Below are positions 5,617 to 43,379 of a stretch of 43,379 nucleotides of DNA, piece after piece; position 1 is the first letter of the stretch, and every line of letters starts with the position of its first letter. The position numbers and the translations under genes were made by a program. This DNA comes from Candidatus Absconditabacterales bacterium (GTDB taxonomy: Bacteria; Patescibacteriota; Gracilibacteria; Absconditabacterales; Absconditicoccaceae): positions 1 through 43,379 of the forward strand of contig CALGNI010000043.1 in assembly GCA_937958645.1 (NCBI GenBank), in the 5' to 3' direction. The notes beneath the pieces are model-generated. The model was not told where the DNA came from and ran no database searches. It saw nothing but the letters and a program-made list of their open reading frames with translations.

Positions 5617-6063
5617 TTACCGACGAAGCAAGCTTCGCGGTATCCTTGGTTGGAATTGTTTTTTATTTGCTACGAAGCAAGCTTCTTGGTATTCTTTCTT
5701 CGAAATAAAAAGAAATCTTTTGGTTGTGACATTTTTTACTTCTCTAATATCAGTCATATCAAAGGATAGAGTCGATGGATCAATTCCTTGCTCATAACAA
5801 TATGAGGTTACTAAGCTTGATGCCAAGTAATATGCTACATATTGACTATCATGACTTGTACCTACTGTTTGACTAAATAACAGTTGCACACCTTGCTGCT
5901 CACGCAATTTTTGTAAAGTAGTATTAATTTCCTCTTTATTTAATCCTATTTGTTTTTGTTTGTTAAACTTAACATTTAATGTTGAGCGATTTTTCATTCT
6001 AGACTTGAGTTCATTAATTCTCTCTTTTTTAGGTAATTTCCAAAATTCTTTTGTATAGTTCAT
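5617..6063 (-). CDS. Orphan 148-aa protein, no TGA codons
   Basis: I do not recognise this protein. It starts MNYTKEFWKLPKKERINEL, is basic and probably helical, has no signal or membrane segment, and ends in a basic tail (IPRSLLRR). All four glycines use GGN codons, unlike the surrounding genes, so it is open in both the standard code and code 25. The last 35 codons run through two CGAAGC/GCTTCG hairpin sequences, suggesting that the C-terminus was extended or replaced by a small repeat. A fragment of the same 3' region lies inverted at 5390-5432. A strong terminator follows. It could be a recently acquired gene. Confidence 0.7.
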   Translation of the reverse strand: MNYTKEFWKLPKKERINELKSRMKNRSTLNVKFNKQKQIGLNKEEINTTLQKLREQQGVQLLFSQTVGTSHDSQYVAYYLASSLVTSYCYEQGIDPSTLSFDMTDIREVKNVTTKRFLFISKKEYQEACFVANKKQFQPRIPRSLLRR

Positions 6064-8275: not shown

Positions 8276-8310
8276 AAGGAAGGTAGAATGAAGAAATAAG
8301 AATGAAGAAA

Positions 8311-8346
8311 AAAAAGCCTCTCAAGGAAATTTGAGGGCTTTTTTTG
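8311..8346. terminator. Bidirectional terminator between dnaK and the minus-strand operon
   Basis: AGCCTCTCAA-GGAAAT-TTGAGGGCT is followed by T7 on the plus strand and by T8-9 on the minus strand. It serves dnaK from one side and the 9235-8357 genes from the other. It is nearly identical to the terminator at 9343-9377. Confidence 0.85.
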
Positions 8347-8356
8347 ATTTAAAATG

Positions 8357-8491
8357 TTACTTTATAGCGTAGTGAATTTTCACTGATATTGCGATAATTA
8401 TAACCACAAGAATAATTGGAAACCAAAGATTCTTGAAGGAAAAAACTTTTTTCATAAAAGCCTTATCTGACTGTTTTTTTTCTGTATTCAT
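8357..8491 (-). CDS. Small single-pass membrane protein, 44 aa
   Basis: MNTEKKQSDKAFMKKVFSF is a charged N-terminal part, followed by one hydrophobic helix (about residues 22-37, FPIILVVIIIAISV) and a short tail. It ends in TAA just before the terminator. In length and layout it matches the 46-aa protein at 9402-9542 (charged Lys-rich head, then one membrane helix), and it occupies the same last place in the parallel mini-operon. No glycine is present. The function is unknown. Confidence 0.6.
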   Translation of the reverse strand: MNTEKKQSDKAFMKKVFSFKNLWFPIILVVIIIAISVKIHYAIK

Positions 8492-8506
8492 GATTCGATA
8501 TTTTTT

Positions 8507-8587
8507 TTAATATAATATTTCTCCAAGAAGTTTAGAGCTAGTATTGAGTAAAGAAGTAATAAGTAATTCAATTGTTTTTGATTTCAT
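8507..8587 (-). CDS. Very short ORF (26 aa), possibly a truncated relative of the 90-aa protein
   Basis: ATG at 8587 lies 3 nt after the stop of the 8591-9235 gene, giving MKSKTIELLITSLLNTSSKL and then LGEILY. The end resembles the segment VTLGEIF in the 90-aa protein that holds the matching position in the other mini-operon. It may be a real small peptide or the remnant of a truncated gene. The support is positional and weak. Confidence 0.35.
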   Translation of the reverse strand: MKSKTIELLITSLLNTSSKLLGEILY

Positions 8588-8590
8588 GAT

Positions 8591-9235
8591 TTATGGTTTT
8601 TTTGATAATTTTAGTGATTTTGTTGGTAGATAATATTGTGTATGAATTTTAGTGTCTTCGACAGCTTTATACCCATGTAGAATACTCTCAATGAGTTCCT
8701 TGAGAGACTTCTCGATGGAAGAATTTACTAATTCGGACATTGGTGTTTCTTCACACCCATGAAATGCTACTCTGCAAATATAGGCATTATCATGATTTTT
8801 CATGTCGAGTAATTGAAGGCCGTACTTTATTGGATCGTACTTCACAAAGCACTTCATCCATCGTATCAAGGTCGGACGAACCACGTAGTGACATGTTTTT
8901 AGTACTTCAACTATCTTTTCGAAAACTGTATCTAAGGTGTCTGGGTAAATACTTTTTTGACTTATCTGAAGTCCGTATAGATGCATTGGATTTGATGTTG
9001 CAGGATTGCCCCTCATTCCATAATTTGAATGATTGTCTTTTTCTGCACATCGATCAGCATGTTCAAACCATTTTTCGTCGGTGATTTCGCCTTCTATTGG
9101 AGCCAGATATAAGGCTTCAAGATCACTCTTATCGTTAATCTTTTCTAGGAGATGATCAATGCATGCTTGATCTCTTGCAATTTTTTGTAGTTCGACGATT
9201 GTTAAATCCTCCAAACGAGGAGCTATATTGTTCAT
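8591..9235 (-). CDS. Orphan protein (214 aa), paralogue of the 9899-10474 product
   Basis: No known family is recognised. It is soluble, without a signal peptide. It shares with the 191-aa protein an N-terminal ELT-IA pattern and a central block: EVLKTCHYVVRPTLIRWMKC here and EVIKTCPLDTVRSVLSFMLC there, each followed by FVK and later by Q-LL. The start at 9235 (MNNIAPRLEDLT) is preferred over the in-frame ATG at 9268 because the roughly 45 bases before it, including ACCTTAAAATA, align with those before the paralogue's ATG. All seven glycines use GGN, none TGA. It is first in a mini-operon with the 26-aa and 44-aa ORFs. Confidence 0.75.
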   Translation of the reverse strand: MNNIAPRLEDLTIVELQKIARDQACIDHLLEKINDKSDLEALYLAPIEGEITDEKWFEHADRCAEKDNHSNYGMRGNPATSNPMHLYGLQISQKSIYPDTLDTVFEKIVEVLKTCHYVVRPTLIRWMKCFVKYDPIKYGLQLLDMKNHDNAYICRVAFHGCEETPMSELVNSSIEKSLKELIESILHGYKAVEDTKIHTQYYLPTKSLKLSKKP

Positions 9236-9342
9236 AGTTAGTATTTTAAGGTTCACGAATATTGACATAATAGAGTTAATGTTTCTTATTGCAAGATGTT
9301 CTTCCGTTTACCAGCGTGTTTTTTGCGGATATATCTAAAAAT

Positions 9343-9377
9343 AAAAAAAGCCTCTCAAGGAAATCTTGAGGGCTTTT
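9343..9377 (-). terminator. Terminator of the upstream mini-operon
   Basis: AGCC-T-CTCAAG, loop GAAAT, CTTGAGGGCT, then T7 reading on the minus strand. It is almost identical in sequence to the hairpin at 8311-8346, supporting duplication of the operon together with its terminator. Confidence 0.8.
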
Positions 9378-9401
9378 GTAAATAACTATGATGTTTGAAT
9401 A

Positions 9402-9542
9402 TTATTTTACAAATTGCAATAAAATTGCGACAATAATATATAAGACTGCAACAATAATCAAAAATCTCATTCCTTTTAATGAAAAAGCTTGTTTTATGTT
9501 ATTTATAGCTTTTTCGTCCTTTTGTTTGTTGTCTTTACTCAT
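9402..9542 (-). CDS. Small single-pass membrane protein, 46 aa
   Basis: MSKDNKQKDEKAINNIKQAF is followed by one membrane helix, about residues 26-43 (FLIIVAVLYIIVAILL). It ends in TAA 25 nt before the terminator and is the last gene after the 191-aa and 90-aa genes. The same design is seen in the 44-aa product at 8357-8491. Its single glycine is GGA. The function is unknown. Confidence 0.6.
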   Translation of the reverse strand: MSKDNKQKDEKAINNIKQAFSLKGMRFLIIVAVLYIIVAILLQFVK

Positions 9543-9614
9543 GATTTAGTATTTTTATTAGAAGATGTAGTTTAGAGTTACTATTAAGCTAACCCAATAT
9601 AGAACAATAATGGC

Positions 9615-9887
9615 CTAAACAATTCTAAATCGATCATTTGCCATTTCGGCAAACGTACTCAAAAATATTTTTATATAAATTATGCTCAAAAATATAAATA
9701 ATAATGAGGTATTGTTTATTCCGAAAATACAAAATATTGACTGTTTACCACACCAGTATACTGCTGGAAATGTTATGAATAAGTATATCGATGAGAATAT
9801 CTCACCAAGGGTTACTTGAATTTTTCTACTTAGATGTAATCTAACTTTTTGATTGATGTTTTTAAATATATTGATTCCTTCTGTCAT
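9615..9887 (-). CDS. Small membrane protein, 90 aa
   Basis: Two hydrophobic stretches, about residues 33-50 (FSSIYLFITFPAVYW) and 57-77 (LLFIFLSIIYIKIF), flank a short loop containing Cys. The amphipathic N-terminus reads MTEGINIFKNINQKV. It starts 11 nt downstream of the 191-aa gene, so the two are probably co-transcribed. All four glycines are GGN. I do not recognise a family. The position and small size would suit a membrane partner of the 191-aa protein, but that is inference. Confidence 0.65.
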   Translation of the reverse strand: MTEGINIFKNINQKVRLHLSRKIQVTLGEIFSSIYLFITFPAVYWCGKQSIFCIFGINNTSLLFIFLSIIYIKIFLSTFAEMANDRFRIV

Positions 9888-9898
9888 GATTTGTGCTT

Positions 9899-10474
9899 TT
9901 AGTTATGTTTTTTAATAAGTTGATATGGATTATGACTTACATCATGCTTTCCATGATTTCTTTCGTATTCAATTCGATATAGATGATTGAGAAATGAGAC
10001 ATGCTCTTCATTGATCAAAGAAATATATGTTCTTCGTTCTTGAGGATTAATTTCTCTATGTTCGTCTCTGGAGATTAATACACTCAAGAACTTTCTCCTT
10101 TCACTAGATATAAGAGAATGATCTTGATATAAGAGATATTGACAATATTTGGAAGATGCTTTAACAAAGCATAGCATGAATGATAAGACACTTCTTACAG
10201 TGTCTAATGGGCATGTCTTGATCACTTCACATGTCCAAGCAAAAAGACGATCATGGATCGGTTTATATTCAGGATGTTTAATTATTGCTGAATAAAAATC
10301 CATTATCTTTGTGGGTTCATTCTTTTCAAACCTCTCAATCAGATTGTCTATTGCCTCACCGGTATTTTTTAGAAGATGAAGATTAAAGTTTCCATAATTC
10401 TTTTCGTTCGATGCAATCTCAATAAATTGCTCTTTTGTTAACTCCACCAGAGGAATAATGGTTTTTACTTCCAT
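9899..10474 (-). CDS. Orphan protein (191 aa), paralogue of the 8591-9235 product
   Basis: A soluble, charged, probably all-helical protein with a His/Asn-rich C-terminus (HGKHDVSHNPYQLIKKHN). Its central segment EVIKTCPLDTVRSVLSFMLC then FVK aligns with the 214-aa protein. I know no family for it. All three glycines are GGN. ATG 10474 is preceded by CCACCTTAAAATATACAAAC, matching the leader of the paralogue, with a possible -10 (TAAAAT) about ten nt before the ATG. It is the first gene of a three-gene mini-operon with the 90-aa and 46-aa membrane proteins. Confidence 0.75.
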   Translation of the reverse strand: MEVKTIIPLVELTKEQFIEIASNEKNYGNFNLHLLKNTGEAIDNLIERFEKNEPTKIMDFYSAIIKHPEYKPIHDRLFAWTCEVIKTCPLDTVRSVLSFMLCFVKASSKYCQYLLYQDHSLISSERRKFLSVLISRDEHREINPQERRTYISLINEEHVSFLNHLYRIEYERNHGKHDVSHNPYQLIKKHN

Positions 10475-10615
10475 AGTTTGTATATTTTAAGGTGGACGAA
10501 TGTTGATAGTGTAGTGAATAGCTGTATAATATCTACTCCAAAATTTGACAAAACCCCATATCTACCCATATAATTGTGTTAAGGAAATGATGAAAAACTT
10601 AGCGAAGAGTTAGAA

Positions 10616-14848: not shown

Positions 14849-15066
14849 GTTGGGTAAATTAGGTAAATTAGGTGAATTAGGTGAATTAGGTAAATTAGGT
14901 AAATTAGGTAAATTAGGTAAATTAGGTAAATTAGGTAAATTAGGTAAATTAGGTAAATTAGGTAAATTAGGTAAATTAGACAAATTAGGTAAATTAGGAA
15001 AATTAGGTAAATTAGGTAAATTAGGTAAATTAGGTAAATTAGGAAAATTAGGTGAATTAGACAAAT
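14849..15066. repeat. 9-bp minisatellite, about 24 units (GGTAAATTA)
   Basis: A tandem array of GGTAAATTA with variants GGTGAATTA, GACAAATTA and GGAAAATTA. It starts a few bases after the xth stop. Because the unit is a multiple of three and has no stop in most frames, it gives spurious ORFs on both strands (Gly-Lys-Leu repeats on plus, Pro-Asn-Leu and Tyr-Leu-Ile repeats on minus). Copy number probably varies between strains by slippage. Related 9-bp units occur at 4853-4897. Confidence 0.95.
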
Positions 15067-18031: not shown

Positions 18032-20869
18032 ATGAGCAAAGATACAAGATTTTCTCCGGATTTTACCTGAGTAGCAAAAGATAAAAGTTACTATGCACTC
18101 ACGATGTTTCCCTATCCATCTGGTTCTGGATTGCACTGCGGTCATGCTTCTGTTTTCACGATCAATGATGTGGTAGCCAGATACAAACGTATGCAATGAT
18201 TTGCCGTGTTAAACCCTTTTGGTTTCGATGCTTTTGGTCTTCCTACAGAAAACTATGCGATTCAGCAGGGAAAGCCTGCTCGTGAAGTAACCGACATCAA
18301 TAAGCAGCATTTTCTAGATCAAGTGGAAGCATTGAATATGAGTTTTGATATGGAAAGAATTATTGATACCTCAGAACCTGAGTATTATAAATGGACGCAA
18401 TGGATTTTTTCAAAACTCTATGAGGCGGGACTAGCATTTAAAGACACGCTCTGGGTAAATCGATGTCCTTCATGTATGACGGTGCTAGCAAATGATCAAG
18501 TGGTTGATGGTGCTTGTGAACGCTGTAAGTCTGAGATCATCCAAAAGAAACATCCTCAGTGGTTTATTAAGATCACAGACTATGCTGACAGACTTATTGC
18601 GGACTTAGATACTGTAGACCGACCAGAAGAAACTAAAATAGCGCAGAGAAATCGAATTGGGAGATCGGAGGGAGCTGAGATTGAGTTTGAGGTGGCCCTC
18701 ACCCCCCAGCCCCCTCTCCCAACCACTCCTCGTGCCTCGTCACTAGGAGAGGGGGAGGAAGTGAAAATCACCTGTTTCACGACACGTCCTGATACGATCT
18801 ATGGAGTGACTGCGATTGTACTCGCTCCAGAGAATACACTCTTGGATGACATGCTTGATGATGAACACACAACGAAAGTACATGAATACAGACAAACTAC
18901 CTTGGCCAAAACTGCAGTCCAAAGACAGAAAGACCTCAAAGAAAAAACTTGAGTAAATTCTGGTTTGTTTGCAATACACCCACTCACACAAAAAGAAATC
19001 CCTATCCGATACGCTGACTATGTACTAGCTGGATATGGTTCGTGAGCGGTGATGAGTGTGCCTGCACATGATGCGAGAGATAAGGAGTTTGCGGAGAAGT
19101 TTGGGTTGGAGGTAGTTCAGGTGATTAGGCCATTGGTTTCAAATACTGATTTTGATTCAATTGAATTAGAAAGAATTTGATGATACTGTATGATTAAACA
19201 TGAGTCTGAAGAAATGTATTTGGTGGTAAAAGCAGATTGAAAAATAATGTTTCCTTGATGAGGAATTGATGAATGAGAATCTATTCAGCAGTGAGCTGTA
19301 AGAGAAGTAATAGAAGAGACATGATATAAGAATATCGAAATAAAATCTAAGTTGATCGAGATGAATGCAAAGCATTATTTCAAAAAGATTGGGTGATGAG
19401 CACTAACAAATGCTACTATCTTTAAAGCTAGTTTAATGAACGATGAAAATAACTGATTGTCACTAACAAAAGATGAAAAGAAATCCGGAATGCAATATAT
19501 TTGGATGTCTGAACAGCAGATTGTTTCTGAAAATAAAGATGTAGTCTGGGAGTATCTGTTTAATGTTCTTTTGTGAAAAGTAACTATTCGCGAATGAACG
19601 CTTATGAATTCATGAGAATTCAATTGATTATCTCACGTTGACGGACAAAAGATGATAACGGCTCATCTTGAAGATCTATGAGTAGGAAGAAAAAAAGTGA
19701 CATACAAGCTACGTGACTGGTCTGTAAGTAGACAGAGATATTGGGGGAGTCCGGTGCCGATTTGGTATGATGAAGAAGGTAATGATCACCTCGTTCCAGA
19801 ATCTGAACTCCCCGTAGTGCTTCCTTTAGATCTAGAAGATTATAAACCCACAGGAAAGAGTCCATTGGAGGATCATCCTACGTTTCCGAAGTATGGTGAG
19901 AATGGAACCCGCGAATGCGACACCCTGGACACCTTCATGTGTAGCTCGTTCTATTTCCTTCGTTTTCCTGATGCGCACAATGATGAGGAATTGATTCGTA
20001 AAGAGTTGGCTGAGAGTTTGTTGCCGGTGGATTTCTATAGTGGAGGGAAAGAGCATACAGTCGGTCATTTACTATACTCTCGCTTTATCCACAAATTTTT
20101 GTTTGATCAATGATATGTGGATAGCCCAGAGCCTTTCAAGAAATTGATTCATCAAGGAATGGTGCTTGGATCTGATGGGCGCAAGATGGGGAAGAGATAT
20201 GGTAATGGAATAGATCCTACTGAAGTGGTCAATAAGTACGGTGCAGATGCAGTAAGGACCTATATGATGTTTATGTGACCAGTAGAAGCCGATAAACCAT
20301 GGAGTGATACGGCATTAAATGGTGTAGCTAAGTTTTTGAAAAGAGTGGAGAGACTTATGGATGATGGGTTTATATGAGATGAGAATGATGAAATAGAATC
20401 AGCATTAAATATAGCAATAAAATGAGTTACAGAAGATATAGAAAAACTAAAGCTAAATACTTGTATCTCTAAGTTGATGATATTAAATAATTTTGTTCAC
20501 ATGAAGAATGCAGGATCTAATAAATTAAATATATCAAAGAGACAACTATTAATAATAGCTCAATTATTAGCTCCATTTGCTACTGAATTAGCAGAAAAAA
20601 TTTGGAAAAACATGTGATGAGAATGAGATGTTCATTTCAGTCTTCGACCGATTTATGATGAAACTAAAATCATTGAAGCTGCAATAAATATTCCCGTACA
20701 AATTAATGGTAAAGTCAGGTGATTTCTAGTTGCTGATACATGACTAACTGAAGATGAGGTTGTTAGATGAGCAATGACATTAGAAAATATAGAGAAACGA
20801 TTGGAATGAAAAGACCTAGTGAAGATTATTTGGGTCCAGGATAAGATTTTGAATTTGATTGTGAAATAA
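18032..20869 (+). CDS. leuS: Leucyl-tRNA synthetase with an inserted Nudix domain
   Basis: 945 aa. It charges tRNA-Leu with leucine in the cytoplasm. The Rossmann core has the HIGH motif as HCGH in [13 protein letters not shown], a zinc site (CPSC and CERC), the editing (CP1) motifs [12 protein letters not shown] and [27 protein letters not shown], and KMSKS as KMGKR. Between residues about 375 and 515, where other bacterial LeuRS have a short link from VPAHD-RD to VNSGEF, there is an extra domain with a complete Nudix box (GGIDEGE, seven residues, REVIEETGY). A GC-rich palindrome is also translated at residues 222-243. The length exceeds the usual 810-870 aa by about the size of the insert. 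The C-terminal domain ends ILNLIVK. Confidence 0.96.
18693..18760 (+). repeat. GC-rich palindromic element translated inside leuS
   Basis: CCCTCACCCCCCAGCCCCCT opens it, and the arms CCCCCTCTCC (18710-18719) and GGAGAGGGGG (18746-18755) can pair. Its composition is far from that of the A/T-rich surroundings. It stays in frame as [20 protein letters not shown]. The sequence type resembles short GC-rich palindromes dispersed in many bacterial genomes. Confidence 0.75.
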
Positions 20870-42850: not shown

Positions 42851-43379
42851 ATGAAACAACCATACGAAACGCAAAGACGATGATATTTATCAAATAAATT
42901 GGAGGGCTTTTGAATTACTCAAAAGCCTAATTTTTCAAAATTACTAGAAAAAATAGATCGCTCGATAGAGAAAAATTTACAAGATGAGTCTTGAGTAGTT
43001 GTAGATAGGGTTAGAAAAGAAATTTCCTATAACCTCTTAGTGATACTCCACAGATCACAGCAATCAAAGCAGAAAAAATCTACATCTCCTATCACAGCTA
43101 TGTATGCTAACCAGTCACTGCTTTGAGTGCTCGGTATATCAGAATTATCTTATCATGAGATAAAAAATATCTCTGGTAATGAAAGTTTCTCATCGATAAC
43201 AGGGATGCAGAATGGAAGATGAATGATAAAAGAAAAAGACTTTGAGGCCTTAATAAGGCTGTGTACGGATGAAGGAGAGGTGAATTATGAACTAATGAAA
43301 TCGATAACAGGGATGCAGGCGTGAAGATGAATGATAAAAGAAAAAGACTTTGAGGACTTAATAAGGCTGTGTACGGATG
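42851..43379 (+). CDS. Tandem-repeat helical protein, partial (runs off the right edge)
   Basis: 176 codons are visible, with no stop. The N-terminal 110 residues (MKQPYETQRRGYLSNKLEGF...) are helical and not recognised. From about residue 115 there are near-perfect 36-aa repeats of SITGMQNGRGMIKEKDFEAL then IRLCTDEGEVNYELMK. The second unit, SITGMQAGRGMIKEKDFEDL, differs at few residues. Such GMQ-GRGM-KEKDFE units look like short two-helix repeats stacking into a solenoid. No signal peptide is seen. TGA is used for Gly inside the repeats. Confidence 0.75.
43194..43379 (+). repeat. 108-bp tandem repeat inside the last gene
   Basis: Unit 1 spans 43194-43301 and unit 2 starts at 43302 and reaches the edge. 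They are nearly identical at DNA level (AATGGAAGATGA versus GCGTGAAGATGA is the main difference), so the duplication is recent or kept uniform by recombination. Confidence 0.9.

What the first reader, a model, noticed from the sequence alone, without database searches (positions are those of the whole stretch)
8311..10474. Duplicated mini-operon of unknown function
Two minus-strand units lie in tandem: 191-aa + 90-aa membrane + 46-aa single-pass protein, and 214-aa + 26-aa remnant + 44-aa single-pass protein. The large proteins share EV-KTC-...-R-...-M-CFVK-...-Q-LL, the small ones share layout, the leaders share CCTTAAAATA before the ATG and the terminators are nearly the same. A soluble partner with small membrane proteins, duplicated and diverged, is a pattern seen in toxin/immunity, phage-defence and signalling modules. 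I recognise no domain, so this is open.
Basis: partly seen in the sequence, partly recalled or inferred. Interest (0 to 1): 0.65.

Follow-up and report, generated by a model that had tools for sequence, protein, structure and literature searches.

The report
Imported duplicated orphan membrane-gene cassette
A bacterium that reads the stop codon TGA as glycine carries, inserted between two of its own genes, a twice-repeated block of orphan genes that contain no TGA at all; the block was probably captured from a bacterium with the ordinary genetic code, and it looks like one of dozens of such imports in this genome.

Summary
The duplication is real. Two minus-strand units lie in tandem between dnaK and a subtilase gene. 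Each has a soluble protein (191/214 aa) and a single-pass membrane protein (46/44 aa), a shared 24-nt leader (21/24 identical) and a shared terminator (34 of 35). The "26-aa remnant" of the 90-aa gene is not supported. No homologue, domain or fold was found anywhere searched.

The host uses genetic code 25 (TGA=Gly, about 40% of Gly codons), yet the five main unit ORFs have 0 TGA in about 16 Gly codons. TGA does occur in the shifted and reverse frames of both large ORFs. In a same-genus genome dnaK and the subtilase gene lie 153 nt apart, so the block is an insertion. About 8% of sampled genes of 150 aa or more are also TGA-free, scattered among TGA-rich neighbours, with A-rich SD-less leaders like those of a Saprospiraceae genome. 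Three TGA-free frames carry a Bacteroidota type IX secretion tail.

Best reading: a captured, diverging accessory module that evolved under the standard code. A soluble partner with a membrane micro-effector (toxin/immunity- or Abi-like) is the likeliest mechanism, but only inferred. Codon usage other than TGA does not separate the block clearly, and no donor was found.

The parts
9899..10474 (-). unit 1, large soluble protein, 191 aa, no TGA; predicted all-helical
9615..9887 (-). unit 1, 90-aa membrane protein with at least one strong TM segment (residues about 50-83)
9402..9542 (-). unit 1, 46-aa single-pass protein: Lys-rich N-terminus, TM to the C-terminus
9343..9377 (-). unit 1 intrinsic terminator
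10483..10506 (-). unit 1 leader element TCAACATTCGTCCACCTTAAAATA, followed by ...AACTATG
8591..9235 (-). unit 2, large soluble protein, 214 aa, no TGA
8507..8587 (-). 26-aa ORF of unit 2; not demonstrably a remnant of the 90-aa gene
8357..8491 (-). unit 2, 44-aa single-pass protein, homologue of the 46-aa protein
8309..8343 (-). unit 2 terminator; T-runs on both sides, so it may also serve convergent dnaK
9242..9265 (-). unit 2 leader element TCAATATTCGTGAACCTTAAAATA
8276..10544 (.). outer limits of the inserted block between dnaK (ends 8275) and the promoter of the S8 gene
   Evidence: gap absent in same-genus genome G107, where dnaK and the S8 gene are 153 nt apart
10545..10574 (+). perfect sigma-70 consensus (TTGACA-18-TATAAT), probably the promoter of the S8 gene
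   Evidence: a promoter-like sequence lies at the matching place in G107 (by eye)

Best explanation
The feature is a horizontally acquired accessory cassette: two tandem, diverged copies of one transcription unit. Each is transcribed from its own leader and ends at its own terminator. It evolved where TGA is a stop codon (a standard-code bacterium, plausibly Bacteroidota, or a phage or plasmid compatible with both codes) and was inserted between dnaK and the S8 gene of a code-25 Patescibacterium. Shown: the duplication, the lack of TGA in real coding frames, and absence of the block from a same-genus genome. Inferred: each unit pairs a cytosolic helical protein with a single-pass membrane micro-protein, N-terminus in the cytoplasm by the positive-inside rule, so that the soluble protein holds or triggers a membrane-acting effector (toxin/immunity- or abortive-infection-like). 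Divergence of the proteins against near-identical terminators suggests diversifying selection on the proteins. Confidence is about 0.75 for the origin and 0.25-0.3 for the mechanism; the figure below is for origin plus architecture.
For: TGA is 39-40% of Gly codons in host genes (416 of 1065 in the window; 5703 of 14240 in 505 genes) but 0 of about 16 in the five main unit ORFs (P=3e-4). TGA occurs in every shifted and reverse frame of both large ORFs, so these are selected reading frames. In G107 dnaK and the S8 gene are 153 nt apart against 2502 nt here. 41 of 505 sampled own genes of 150 aa or more are TGA-free, spread over 27 mostly TGA-rich contigs; their leaders are A-rich (0.56 against 0.32 for TGA-rich genes), close to a Saprospiraceae genome (0.49), with almost no SD. 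The unit leaders are A-rich too (P=5e-5 for seven leaders including orf148). Three TGA-free frames carry the type IX secretion tail PF18962, two of them on contigs that also hold TGA-rich genes. Paralogy of the units. Membrane segments.
Against: No donor or homologue was found, including in 398 genomes of the order of a Saprospiraceae genome. Synonymous codon use other than TGA favours the foreign class only slightly (+11.6 nats over all units) and is nearer the host than Saprospiraceae genome G631. The units hold few glycines, which limits the TGA test, and a surely native gene, ribosomal protein L9, also has 0 TGA of 8 Gly codons. The absence from relatives rests on one genome. The unit-level mechanism has no direct evidence.
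Confidence: 0.6

Rival explanations
1. Phage- or plasmid-borne accessory cassette (moron or superinfection-exclusion type) from an element compatible with both codes, not a Bacteroidota chromosomal gene.
For: Predicted code-11-compatible, TGA-avoiding phages of Gracilibacteria are described (PMC10746230). Small ORFan membrane proteins fit morons; weak colinear PHROG hits (phrog_6955 E=0.077, phrog_5134 E=0.0097).
Against: No phage, plasmid or viral-contig match (the plasmid hits are weak and unrelated). In the window only orf148, on the other side of dnaK, is also TGA-free; no phage hallmark gene is apparent nearby. The PHROG hits are not significant.
Confidence: 0.25
2. Native, fast-evolving lineage-specific genes that lack TGA by chance or because they have little glycine.
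For: Only about 16 Gly codons; other codon usage is near that of the host; ribosomal protein L9 of the host also has 0 of 8.
Against: P=3e-4 for 0 of 16; TGA present in all shifted frames of both large ORFs; unusual leaders; block absent from a same-genus genome.
Confidence: 0.15
3. The small ORFs are not genes; each unit is one gene with an AT-rich 3' region.
For: Very short; the 26-aa ORF is unsupported.
Against: The 46- and 44-aa proteins are related beyond shuffles that preserve their segments, and both have a single TM segment.
Confidence: 0.07

Closest known systems
Toxin/immunity or abortive-infection pairs (soluble regulator with small membrane effector)
   Same: Layout: soluble protein followed by a very small Lys-rich single-pass membrane protein; duplicated and diverged; accessory and patchy.
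   Different: No family match in PADLOC, Pfam, NCBIfam, PHROGs or PDB; no activity known.
Code-11-compatible phages of Gracilibacteria (PMC10746230)
   Same: TGA-free coding sequence that can be read in a TGA=Gly host.
   Different: Here a chromosomal block in a two-gene interval, no phage hallmark gene seen; no relatives in the phage collections.
HGT genes of Vampirococcus lugosii (PMC8080830)
   Same: Acquisition of foreign genes by a code-25 Patescibacterium.
   Different: There HGT was inferred from phylogenies; here from the absence of TGA, leader type and synteny, which also works for ORFans.

Membership tests
Known anti-phage defence system | match to a PADLOC-DB model | tested here: not met
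   0 hits for 7 proteins
Known protein family | Pfam or NCBIfam match above cut-off | tested here: not met
Toxin-antitoxin / immunity module | toxicity of one product neutralised by the other | not testable with these tools
   needs expression assays
Toxin-antitoxin / immunity module | two co-directional small genes in one transcription unit | tested here: met
   gene gaps, shared leaders and terminators by sequence only; transcription not measured
Horizontally acquired insertion | absent at the orthologous place in a close relative | tested here: met
   G107, dnaK to S8 gene 153 nt; one relative only
Horizontally acquired insertion | compositional signature of foreign origin | tested here: inconclusive
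   no TGA and A-rich leaders met; other codon usage only slightly shifted
Horizontally acquired insertion | identifiable donor or homologue | tested here: not met

The most novel reading that the evidence does not exclude
Absence of TGA is a genome-wide watermark of ongoing gene capture by a code-25 Patescibacterium from the Bacteroidota it lives on or eats. The cassette is one such capture: a new family of interbacterial-conflict or defence modules (helical soluble protein with membrane micro-protein) whose paired copies are diversifying.
Probability: 0.25. Interest if true: 0.75.

Novelty: new variant of a known kind. Interest (0 to 1): 0.5.

Why it matters
In a genome where TGA is an everyday glycine codon, a gene without TGA betrays an origin under the ordinary code even if it has no homologue in any database. 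That makes it possible to list recent imports of an uncultured epibiont, including ORFans, and to guess its partner (here Bacteroidota, by the type IX secretion tails). It also bears on the idea, discussed in PMC8080830, that TGA recoding shields these bacteria from foreign genes: about 8% of sampled genes look like imports that pass because they contain no TGA. The cassette adds an orphan pair of families with a layout worth testing.

Tried and rejected
Spurious weak hits of the 191- and 214-aa proteins in class and phylum genomes: per-genome E-values of 1e-4 to 1e-1 over hundreds of genomes, in frames with stops or unrelated genes. The hit falls in an unrelated 530-aa frame. Fold matches to importin/HEAT/CID proteins (E at least 0.18, TM about 0.3) are meaningless at this model quality; viral fold matches likewise; the 214-aa model is too poor to use (pLDDT 42). 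Rfam matches are all below the gathering score. The CdiI match in PDB is noise (E=0.33). A Bacteroidota locus was not accepted as a search centre; its genome handle was then used. A codon-usage model was tried as independent proof of foreignness and gave only weak support.

Full report
WHAT IS THERE. On the minus strand between dnaK (ends 8275, +) and an S8 peptidase gene (starts 10778, +) lie two units. Unit 1 has 191-aa, 90-aa and 46-aa ORFs; unit 2 has 214-aa, 26-aa and 44-aa ORFs. Both have a leader TCAAyATTCGTnnACCTTAAAATA followed by AACTATG, and an intrinsic terminator identical in 34 of 35 positions. The leader and the terminator were found nowhere else in the 1.55-Mb genome. The 46- and 44-aa proteins are homologous (0 of 10000 segment-preserving shuffles in global mode, 6 in local mode). 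The 191- and 214-aa proteins share a 36-residue core (E=2e-4 for the pair; 19 of 10000 shuffles), but their DNA no longer aligns better than shuffles. The claim that the 26-aa ORF is a remnant of the 90-aa gene fails.

THE SETTING. The host uses code 25: dnaK, leuS, recQ and all other long plus-strand genes of the window need TGA read as a sense codon, and 416 of 1065 window Gly codons are TGA. The five main ORFs of the block hold about 16 Gly codons and no TGA; the chance of that at the host rate is about 3e-4. TGA is present in every shifted and reverse frame of both large ORFs, so its absence marks real reading frames kept free of it. A further minus-strand ORF upstream of dnaK (5617-6063, 148 aa) is also TGA-free.

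INSERTION. In the same-genus genome G107 dnaK (89% identical) is followed after 153 nt by the orthologous S8 gene with nothing between. In the window the gap is 2502 nt. The S8 gene has a perfect sigma-70 consensus at 10545-10574, so the block lies within 8276-10544. This rests on one relative, because the other same-genus genomes gave no full dnaK match.

OTHER IMPORTS. In about 766 kb of the genome, 41 of 505 ORFs of 150 aa or more have no TGA. They are scattered over 27 contigs whose other genes mostly use TGA. Their leaders are A-rich (0.56 against 0.32 in TGA-rich genes) and almost without SD, close to a Saprospiraceae genome (0.49). Among them are a protein with a type IX secretion tail and a dihydroorotate dehydrogenase / amidohydrolase gene pair; several others begin with signal peptides of the kind usual in Bacteroidota (my reading). 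A search of the whole genome for the tail found three TGA-free frames; on C97 one lies beside a gene with 20 TGA codons. One contig (C103) showed only TGA-free long frames in the piece seen and may be a binning contaminant. Some TGA-free genes are surely native by chance, such as ribosomal protein L9 (named from its sequence, not by a family search).

RELATIVES. None were found: 288 class genomes, 49 family genomes with a profile, 380 phylum genomes, scans of species genomes and viral contigs, phage and plasmid records, nine genomes behind fetched loci, mostly Bacteroidota, and 398 genomes of the order of the Saprospiraceae genome. Pfam, NCBIfam, PHROGs, PADLOC and PDB give nothing significant. 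AlphaFold2 from two sequences gives an all-helical 191-aa model (pLDDT 65, pTM 0.60) without a significant structural match.

HOW IT MAY WORK. The small proteins have a Lys-rich N-terminal half and one hydrophobic segment that runs nearly to the C-terminus, so by the positive-inside rule the N-terminus is cytoplasmic. The large proteins are soluble, charged and predicted helical. A soluble partner that holds or triggers a membrane-acting micro-protein is the simplest functional reading; the extra 90-aa membrane protein of unit 1 is unexplained. The expression signals stayed alike while the proteins diverged, which is what diversifying selection on the proteins would give, but recombination of the flanks would do so too. 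None of this has been tested.

ORIGIN. The best reading is import from a standard-code genome, with most of the divergence of the two units before import, since neither has gained a TGA. Bacteroidota are the likeliest source class by analogy with the other imports; Absconditabacteria, relatives that also use code 25, have been reported to co-occur with Bacteroidetes (PMC8406219). A phage compatible with both codes is the main rival (PMC10746230). Against a clear verdict: synonymous codon usage without TGA barely separates the block from host genes and is nearer the host than genome G631.

VERDICT. A real, duplicated, orphan and probably imported cassette; its function is unknown and the mechanism given is an inference. 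The wider observation, TGA-free genes as a mark of import in a code-25 genome, is of more general interest than the cassette itself.

Noticed in passing
window 18032-20869 (+): Leucyl-tRNA synthetase whose editing domain is interrupted by a NUDIX hydrolase domain (Pfam NUDIX E=8e-10 at residues 402-497, directly after the editing-domain match 206-376).
   Followed up: partly
window 5617-6063 (-): Another TGA-free orphan ORF (148 aa, 0 of 4 Gly codons TGA) with a very A-rich leader, upstream of dnaK on the same strand as the units.
   Followed up: partly
window 14853-15060: Tandem array of about 23 copies of the 9-mer GGTAAATTA, 94% matches, between an exodeoxyribonuclease-like gene and a RuvC-like gene.
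   Followed up: no
L188:949-3345: TGA-free pair of genes, dihydroorotate dehydrogenase and an amidohydrolase (dihydroorotase-like), on a contig with TGA-rich genes: a possibly imported pyrimidine pathway.
   Followed up: partly
L080:9869-11548, L097:988-2523, L099: TGA-free genes with MopE-type motifs and/or type IX secretion tails in a Patescibacterium genome.
   Followed up: partly
L089:1455-4972: Run of five TGA-free orphan ORFs, with one nearly TGA-free ORF among them, several with membrane-like segments: a second, larger island of the same kind.
   Followed up: partly
window 42851-43379: Incomplete protein with repeats of about 22 residues (SITGMQ.GRGMIKEKDFE.LIRLCTD) and no Pfam match, cut by the contig end.
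   Followed up: no
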